Of a stretch of DNA of 45,812 bases, positions 16,499-17,714 are shown one piece after another. Position 1 is the stretch's first letter, and the number at the start of each line of letters is the position of its first letter. Both the position numbers and the translations under genes were made by a program. The stretch comes from Desulfurococcales archaeon (GTDB lineage Archaea; Thermoproteota; Thermoprotei_A; Sulfolobales; NBVN01): the NCBI GenBank assembly GCA_027002995.1, contig JALWZB010000105.1:1-45812 (forward strand), given 5' to 3'. The notes beneath the pieces were generated by a model, which searched no databases, was not told where the DNA came from, and saw only the letters and a program-made list of their open reading frames with translations.

Positions 16499-16762
16499 TT
16501 GAAGGTCACCATTCGAAGAAACGAAATAATAATTGAGGAGATAGCCACCCACATTACCGCTGAGCTACTGACCAAGCAGTTAAGCGAGTTACTAGAAACA
16601 CGCGAGAGGAGGATAGCGTTCTTCTATGAGGGCGGGCCAGGCCCGTTAAACAAGGGGATGATAATTAAGGTGAGGCTCTCCAAGGAATTAGGGGGAAGCG
16701 ACTTAGTAGCAGTGAAGAAGTTTTTCGAGGTCCGCGGGATACCTGCTAAAGTGGTAGTGTAA
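16499..16762 (+). CDS. Small conserved-looking protein of unknown function
   Basis: 87 residues from a TTG start (16499); no ATG or GTG is available in frame, and GAGAAGG lies directly before it. The sequence is well formed (basic start KVTIRRNEIIIEEI, helix ITAELLTKQLSELLETRE, then GGPGPLNKGMI and VRLSKELGG, ending RGIPAKVVV) and has codon use like its neighbours. I do not recognise the family. It lies 60 bp after the Mo-hydroxylase large subunit on the same strand, so it may be a fourth member of that unit, or simply the next gene. Confidence 0.6.
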   Translation: MKVTIRRNEIIIEEIATHITAELLTKQLSELLETRERRIAFFYEGGPGPLNKGMIIKVRLSKELGGSDLVAVKKFFEVRGIPAKVVV

Positions 16763-16857
16763 TAGTCAATAGTCATCACTTAAAACTAATCGCTGACCGT
16801 GTATCAAGCGTTTCCCCTCTCACGGTACCTTTACTTAGTTTTTAGTGTTTTTAGTTC

Positions 16858-17005
16858 CGTGGGTGGGTTGGTCCTTGGTGTGGGTTTATGGCTTCGCCCG
16901 CACCGCGTGGGCCCGGTCGAGGGGAACGCCACGGGCCTCCATCCTCGGAGGGGTGCCTCACCAAGAAGCGGGTCATCAAGCACAACCATACACAATCCCC
17001 ACCAG
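16858..17005 (+). ncRNA. Candidate structured non-coding RNA A
   Basis: GC-rich block in AT-rich surroundings with no coding potential. Helices seen by eye: closing stem GGTGGG (16862-16867) with CCCACC (16998-17003), CTTGGTG (16874-16880) with CACCAAG (16959-16965), CGTGG (16906-16910) with CCACG (16929-16933), and the hairpin CCTCC-ATCCTC-GGAGG (16936-16951). An AT-rich TATA-like run at 16835-16844 is at the right distance for a start near the closing stem. It lacks the diagnostic segments of RNase P and SRP RNA, so family unknown. Strand is inferred from the promoter. Confidence 0.45.
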
Positions 17006-17055
17006 CGCTTAGAAACATTTAAAAATACCGTTAAAGCTGAAACAGCCGTAGCAGG

Positions 17056-17064
17056 TTTTATATG
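17056..17064 (+). promoter_or_regulatory. TATA box of candidate RNA B
   Basis: TTTTATATG centred near 17060 lies about 25 bp before 17085, the first base of the stem that closes candidate RNA B. The agreement between promoter spacing and RNA end is independent support for that transcript. Confidence 0.5.
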
Positions 17065-17084
17065 ATTGTATATGTTTTCATGCG

Positions 17085-17201
17085 GTTTGGAGGAATGTTA
17101 TTGTAGATGTGCCGTCGCCTGGGGTCGGCGGTGAGCGCCTCCCCAATGACGGATGAAACCCGACCGACAGGGGAGGAACAAGGATGAACCGATGACCAAA
17201 C
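17085..17201 (+). ncRNA. Candidate structured non-coding RNA B
   Basis: About 117 nt. A terminal stem GTTTGG (17085-17090) with CCAAAC (17196-17201) closes it. A strong nested hairpin follows: CCGTC (17112-17116) with GACGG (17148-17152), TGGGG (17120-17124) with CCCCA (17141-17145), GGCG (17127-17130) with CGCC (17136-17139), and loop GTGAG. A competing 7-bp pairing CCTCCCC (17138-17144) with GGGGAGG (17170-17176) is possible, so it could switch. GATGA-type repeats occur near 17152, 17183 and 17191. The downstream CBS-upp unit has its own TATA at 17211, so B is probably a separate RNA and not a leader. No known family recognised. Confidence 0.5.
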
Positions 17202-17210
17202 ACATAAAAA

Positions 17211-17219
17211 CATATAAAG
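17211..17219 (+). promoter_or_regulatory. TATA box of the CBS-upp unit
   Basis: CATATAAAG is a good archaeal TATA box. It predicts a start near 17240 and a leader of about 40-90 nt before the CBS gene, depending on the real start codon. Confidence 0.55.
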
Positions 17220-17330
17220 AGGCGAACCCTACTTGAGGTAAGCAATATTTCCACCTATTCTAACATTTCGTGGTGACCTTAGACGGTCGAGAAACCTGCC
17301 CGTAAGTTAGTTGTCAGGGTAAAGGACATC

Positions 17331-17714
17331 ATGACTACGCCCGTAGTGACGGCAACTAAGGAGTTCCCCATAGAGGATGTGGCTAAGTTAATGTTTGATA
17401 ATAGAATAGGTAGTGTCGTAATAGTGAATGACGAGGAAAAGATCGAGGGAATAGTGACGGAGCGAGACATGATCTACGCCATAGCTAAGAACAAAGTAGG
17501 TAGGGGAATACCCGTCTACACAATCATGACGGAGAACCCCATAACAATAGATCCGGACAAACCACTCATAGATGCCGTCCGTAAAATGCGGGAGGCTAAA
17601 GTAAGGCACCTCCCCGTAGTGAGAGATGGTGTGCCGGTAGGAATGGTTTCATTAAGAGATATTATAGAGGTAATGATATATTTAGCCTCTGGAGGAGAGC
17701 ACCTGGGAAGGTGA
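17331..17714 (+). CDS. Tandem CBS-domain protein
   Basis: 127 residues made of two CBS motifs (TTPVVTATKEFPIEDVAKLM through VTERDMIYAI, then MTENPITIDPDKPLIDAV through PVGMVSLRDIIEVMIYL). These form a Bateman module that senses adenine nucleotides or SAM. No effector domain is attached. One base separates it from upp, so it may act with or regulate uracil salvage (inference). The only canonical start is ATG 17331, yet the frame stays open upstream to a stop at 17280-17282. That upstream part encodes a typical pre-CBS segment ending VRVKDIM, so translation may begin earlier at a non-standard codon. Confidence 0.88.
   Translation: MTTPVVTATKEFPIEDVAKLMFDNRIGSVVIVNDEEKIEGIVTERDMIYAIAKNKVGRGIPVYTIMTENPITIDPDKPLIDAVRKMREAKVRHLPVVRDGVPVGMVSLRDIIEVMIYLASGGEHLGR

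What the first reader, a model, noticed from the sequence alone, without database searches (positions are those of the whole stretch)
17085..17201. Candidate new structured RNA with a strong nested hairpin and a possible switch helix
A 14-bp hairpin in three segments, a separate 6-bp terminal stem, and a TATA box placed about 25 bp before the first paired base all agree on one transcript. A 7-bp alternative helix (CCTCCCC/GGGGAGG) would break the hairpin, and GATGA-type motifs recur in the 3' part. It does not match RNase P, SRP, tRNA, C/D or fluoride-riboswitch patterns.
Basis: partly seen in the sequence, partly recalled or inferred. Interest (0 to 1): 0.6.

Follow-up and report, generated by a model that had tools for sequence, protein, structure and literature searches.

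The report
Transposon guide RNA without its nuclease
The 'new RNA' is the guide-RNA end of a small archaeal jumping gene (IS607/TnpB type) that has lost its own protein genes; it belongs to a known kind of RNA, although relatives of this archaeon carry dozens of such guide-only copies, which is unusual enough to test.

Summary
There is a real structured RNA here, but it is not a free-standing new RNA or a switch. Window 17048-17229 is an internally deleted IS607-type transposon: left end with the tnpA-type TATA box, about 25 codons of the tnpB tail, the TnpB guide-RNA (omegaRNA/reRNA) scaffold, and the right end ..GAACCC followed by a natural guide (17230 on). In related loci the same RNA overlaps the 3' end of intact tnpB genes, one of them beside an IS607 transposase. 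Two same-genus genomes have the empty site, so this is an insertion (16810-17228). Covariation over 53 sequences supports two helices. The left part of the insertion (16810-17044) is a second tnpB-less TnpB-type element on the opposite strand. Related genomes hold many such guide-only copies: 15 of 17 in one, and 22 of 27 strong hits in another lack an adjacent TnpB domain. Known kind; the guide-only expansions are the interesting part. Transcription and activity are untested.

The parts
17048..17229 (+). tnpA/tnpB-less IS607-type element, LE (GTAGCAGG..) to RE (..GAACCC), preceded by AGCC (17044-17047)
   Evidence: LE and RE align to the full IS607 element in L079; RE end shared with L021/L022/L028; empty site in G001/G004
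17057..17064 (+). TATA-like box (TTTATATG) in LE, homologous to the promoter region before tnpA in L079 2227-2269
   Evidence: 79% identity over 43 bp; TATA-like boxes sit 111-119 bp before the scaffold in 11 of the 15 guide-only copies of G005; transcription not tested
17107..17187 (+). remnant of the tnpB C-terminal tail, MCRRLGSAVSASPMTDETRPTGEEQG*
   Evidence: same tail in L021 (..GSAGPRAMTDETRPSLG*) and L022 (..GSWGTRSMTDETRP..)
17110..17229 (+). omegaRNA (reRNA) scaffold, about 120 nt
   Evidence: covariance model hit 17103-17202, 85.5 bits (the window is one of the model's 17 sequences); homologues lie over the 3' end of tnpB
17110..17133 (+). helix P1: 17110-17117 with 17126-17133, loop CCTGGGGT (17118-17125)
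   Evidence: 6 of 7 pairs with changes on both sides, 95.0% of cells paired
   Evidence: 115 of 119 cells paired, partner-swap maximum 107; 6 of 7 pairs with changes on both sides
17224..17229 (+). RE end GAACCC, proposed pseudoknot partner of the P1 loop GGG(U)
   Evidence: position matches the PK of ISDra2 and ISXfa1 (PMC10097598; PMC10711439); the segment is invariant, so no covariation test is possible
17230..17249 (+). natural guide segment, TACTTGAGGTAAGCAATATT
   Evidence: follows the RE; present with 1 mismatch at the empty sites of G001 and G004
16810..17044 (-). second element, minus strand, also tnpB-less; scaffold about 16944 down to 16808, guide region from 16807 down
   Evidence: about 43 further hits in 11 of 41 genomes; in L138 it overlaps the end of a TnpB C-terminal ORF; compensatory pairs

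Best explanation
Window 17048-17229 is a MITE-like, internally deleted IS607-family transposon. It keeps the left end with the tnpA-type promoter, the last codons of tnpB, and the whole guide-RNA (omegaRNA/reRNA) scaffold and right end of a TnpB system. Transcription from the LE TATA box would give an RNA of two helices, a P1-loop/3'-end pseudoknot and a guide copied from the flanking DNA. If a TnpB supplied in trans binds it, the complex would cut DNA carrying AGCC plus the guide sequence, that is the empty insertion site, and so favour keeping the element. Shown: homology, insertion, deleted genes, covarying P1/P2, conserved AGCC at left flanks. Inferred: transcription, pseudoknot, loading into TnpB, cutting.
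For: Homologues lie over the 3' end of an intact 395-aa TnpB in the same genome (guided_TnpB NF040570 103.3 bits, cut-off 100) and of a TnpB beside an IS607 transposase in L079 (NF033518 213.3 bits, cut-off 110). Window LE, tnpB tail and RE align to L079, where the element interrupts a PIN gene with CC at both ends. Empty sites in G001 and G004. P1/P2 covary. AGCC precedes LE in 10 of 10 readable G005 copies. IS607 TnpA reading frames without stops exist in the same genome.
Against: No expression data. The pseudoknot cannot be tested by covariation. No copy identical to the window element was found, so it could be inert debris. The scaffolds of the resident TnpBs are only about 67-75% identical to it, so loading in trans is uncertain. 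L079 has GTGCC, not AGCC, before its LE. IS607 assignment rests on one tnpA-bearing relative.
Confidence: 0.91

Rival explanations
1. Same origin, but dead debris: a deletion relic that is not transcribed or not used by any TnpB. (This shares the identity claim of the best explanation and differs only on activity, so the two confidences are not exclusive.)
For: Single copy of this form; guide-only divergence in G018 is hardly lower in the scaffold than elsewhere (0.075 vs 0.090); sister genomes lack it.
Against: P1, P2, the GGG loop and the RE end are all intact; G005 guide-only copies differ less in the scaffold (0.098) than in LE/linker (0.185); TATA box kept.
Confidence: 0.45
2. A cis-regulatory RNA or riboswitch of the downstream CBS-domain/uracil phosphoribosyltransferase genes, as the switch idea implies.
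For: It lies upstream of these genes on the same strand; two mutually exclusive folds can be drawn.
Against: Absent at the same locus in G001 and G004, whose flanking genes align without a gap; homologues lie beside unrelated genes and over tnpB; one of the two folds is not conserved.
Confidence: 0.03
3. A C/D-box-like or other modification-guide RNA, suggested by the GATGA motifs.
For: GATGA repeats; weak Rfam hit to snoZ163 (18.0 bits, gathering 39).
Against: Below threshold; the GATGA-containing stretch includes tnpB codons (..MTDE..) and conserved RE sequence shared with tnpB loci.
Confidence: 0.01

Closest known systems
TnpB omegaRNA / reRNA (ISDra2 TnpB, PMC10097598)
   Same: Right-end RNA overlapping the tnpB 3' end, scaffold of about 116-120 nt, first stem whose loop faces the last scaffold nucleotides, guide taken from the flank
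   Different: No tnpB or tnpA here; motif AGCC rather than TTGAT; unrelated sequence
IS607 TnpB reRNA (ISXfa1, PMC10711439; RAGATH-18/ISFba1, PMC11061315)
   Same: IS607 transposase beside the relative L079; fixed dinucleotide (CC) at both ends taken into the scaffold end
   Different: Does not match the RAGATH-18 Rfam model in the window; overlaps tnpB, whereas RAGATH-18 reRNA does not (PMC11061315)
Sulfolobus IS200/IS605 TnpB omegaRNA (SisTnpB1, PMC10640517)
   Same: Thermophilic archaeal TnpB guide RNA with hairpins near the 3' end
   Different: That system uses an AT-rich TAM (TTTAA) and keeps tnpB
PATEs of Haloquadratum (PMC3119063)
   Same: Transposase-free elements, some derived by core deletion from TnpB transposons, more numerous than the transposons, often hit by other elements
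   Different: PATEs are IS605-type with near-terminal palindromes; here IS607-type with a covarying guide-RNA scaffold

Membership tests
TnpB omegaRNA / reRNA | RNA overlaps or follows the 3' end of a tnpB gene and reaches the transposon right end | tested here: met
   In homologues L021, L022, L079, L091; the window keeps only the tnpB tail
TnpB omegaRNA / reRNA | Conserved paired scaffold | tested here: met
   P1 and P2 covary, 93.5% cells paired, 0 of 500 shuffles as high
TnpB omegaRNA / reRNA | Pseudoknot between first-stem loop and scaffold 3' end | tested here: inconclusive
   GGG(U) and GAACCC complementary and in the right place, but nearly invariant
TnpB omegaRNA / reRNA | Guide from flanking DNA, matching the empty site next to a motif | tested here: met
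   1 mismatch to G001/G004 empty sites, both after AAGCC
TnpB omegaRNA / reRNA | Bound by TnpB and directs cleavage | not testable with these tools
   needs biochemistry
IS607 family transposon | Serine-recombinase TnpA | tested here: inconclusive
   Absent from the window element; present in L079 (NF033518) and elsewhere in the same genome
IS607 family transposon | Fixed dinucleotide at both ends, no target duplication beyond it | tested here: met
   CC at both ends in L079 and in the window
Known Rfam families (RNase P, SRP, tRNA, C/D, riboswitches) | Match above gathering score | tested here: not met
   none in 16760-17335

The most novel reading that the evidence does not exclude
In this archaeal family a few TnpB nucleases serve many dispersed, self-promoted guide-only elements in trans: a scattered guide array of dozens of different guides, kept by TnpB cutting of empty sites.
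Probability: 0.3. Interest if true: 0.65.

Novelty: new member of a known kind. Interest (0 to 1): 0.42.

Why it matters
It explains an apparent orphan RNA. It also gives an archaeal omegaRNA family (covariance model R1) not matched by Rfam in this window, and exposes genomes where guide-only elements outnumber their nuclease, so trans-use of guides and TnpB-driven retention become directly testable.

Tried and rejected
Rfam at gathering and at E<=10: only weak snoZ163 and thermometer hits, rejected. Folding energy alone is not significant. Hairpin-in-three-segments model: rejected by homologues. Cis-regulation of the CBS/upp genes: rejected by empty sites. First idea that 16810-17228 is one element: rejected, because it is two adjacent elements on opposite strands. 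A 3-bp target duplication and terminal inverted repeat for the minus element was considered; a two-base GC at each end fits as well and is simpler. Sigma-70 and terminator scans are uninformative for archaea. Literature searches for guide-only TnpB elements found no direct report in the held library; this is not proof of absence.

Full report
What was claimed. A new structured RNA at 17085-17201 with a 14-bp nested hairpin, a terminal stem, a TATA box and a 7-bp helix that could act as a switch.

Observation. All the elements can be drawn in the sequence. Folding energy is ordinary (z = -0.96) and no Rfam family matches, so energy alone cannot decide.

Homologues. A DNA search of 41 genomes found paralogues in the same genome and in relatives. 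In L021 (same genome) the match covers the last codons of an intact 395-aa TnpB and the DNA after it; in L022 the TnpB is broken. TnpB searches found more. L079 (an Acidilobaceae archaeon MAG) carries the full arrangement: serine-recombinase tnpA, tnpB, then this RNA. There the element interrupts a PIN-domain gene, with CC at both ends. NCBIfam calls these proteins IS607 transposase (213.3 bits, cut-off 110) and RNA-guided TnpB (100.0, cut-off 100); the L021 TnpB scores 103.3. From sequence, the L021 protein keeps the D/E/D RuvC motifs (ALDVNLK, VEDLEKLW, ADRDTVG).

The window element. Window 17040-17081 aligns to the DNA just before L079 tnpA, and 17107-17229 to the end of tnpB and the right end. 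The tnpB tail MCRRLGSAVSASPMTDETRPTGEEQG* remains in frame; everything between the tnpA promoter region and this tail is missing. The element is thus an internally deleted IS607-type copy, 17048-17229.

Empty site. G001 and G004 align to the window without a gap except for 16810-17228..TCAAGC|CTACTTAAGG.. The RNA is therefore an insertion in this lineage, not an old control element of the CBS-domain and uracil phosphoribosyltransferase genes. The 20 bases after GAACCC match both empty sites with one mismatch, as expected of a TnpB guide.

Structure. In 17 homologues aligned without reference to structure, P1 and P2 pair in 91.0% of cells, with 12 of 14 pairs showing changes on both sides, 0 of 500 shuffles as good, and slid controls at 47-65%. 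With 53 distinct sequences aligned by the model the figure is 93.5% against 37-61% slid (this alignment leans to the model). TnpB binding and the pseudoknot are not in that calculation, and evolution sides with P1/P2. Known omegaRNAs pair the first-stem loop with the last scaffold bases (ISDra2, PMC10097598; ISXfa1, shown by mutation and rescue, PMC10711439). Here GGG(U) in the P1 loop (17118-17125) and GAACCC at 17224-17229 fit that role, but do not vary enough to test.

A second element. The left part of the insertion, 16810-17044, is a separate dispersed repeat on the minus strand. In L138 it overlaps the end of a TnpB C-terminal reading frame (weak TnpB-domain hit below cut-off), and its helices show compensatory changes. 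It is also tnpB-less in the window. The simplest history is that it inserted first, and the plus element then inserted at its AGCC end; this order is inferred.

Guide-only expansions. Model R1 finds 17 strong copies in G005, of which 15 have no tnpB, and 42 (27 at E below 0.001) in G018. Comparing positions with the PF07282 hits, 5 of the 27 strong G018 copies sit beside a TnpB domain. Copies end in a constant GAACCC or GAGCTGAACCCC followed by different guides. In G005, AGCC precedes LE in 10 of 10 readable copies and a TATA-like box lies 111-119 bp before the scaffold in 11. Scaffold divergence among G005 guide-only copies is about half that of LE/linker (0.098 against 0.185); G018 shows little difference (0.075 against 0.090). 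Constraint on the guide RNA is thus suggested, not shown.

Reading. The anatomy says guide RNA of a TnpB transposon, in a copy that would need TnpA and TnpB in trans; IS607 TnpA frames without stops and a complete TnpB frame exist in this genome. Whether the RNA is made and used is unknown. It works like an omegaRNA; membership is met on every sequence feature that could be tested except the pseudoknot, which is inconclusive.

Novelty. The kind is known: omegaRNA, and transposase-free derivatives such as PATEs in haloarchaea (PMC3119063). From general knowledge, not checked here, stand-alone omegaRNAs have also been described for IscB. What is less usual is the number of guide-only copies per nuclease in these archaea.

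Noticed in passing
window 16810-17044 (minus strand); L109, L119, L120, L124 and others: A second dispersed element, about 235 bp, with a covarying scaffold ending GGGGAAACGC, tnpB-less in the window; at L138 it overlaps a TnpB C-terminal frame. Some copies are at the same loci in sister species (L120/L123, L124/L125).
   Followed up: partly
G018 (L176-L195): 42 model hits for a distant relative of this RNA, mostly about 285-bp tnpB-less copies 86-94% identical to each other with different guides.
   Followed up: partly
G005 (L196-L212) and G018 linkers: Guide-only elements of two genomes carry, in place of tnpB, a strong hairpin upstream of the scaffold (TATCCACC..GGTAGGTGGATCCC; GATCGAGAGCC..GGCTCTCCCCGAG). 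Its role is unexplained.
   Followed up: no
L079 2076-4570: An IS607 element interrupts a PIN-domain gene; a truncated integrase-like gene lies just upstream, and a copy of the second repeat at 1103-1240.
   Followed up: partly
L021 1701-1798 (minus strand): Another tnpB-less copy of the plus-family scaffold directly upstream of, and opposite to, the intact TnpB gene.
   Followed up: no
G018 copies L185, L189: An alternative P2-loop variant (AAGGGTGATGCAAACCCAAGACC instead of AAGCCCGATGAAAACCCGAGCGG) that may be a paired swap.
   Followed up: no
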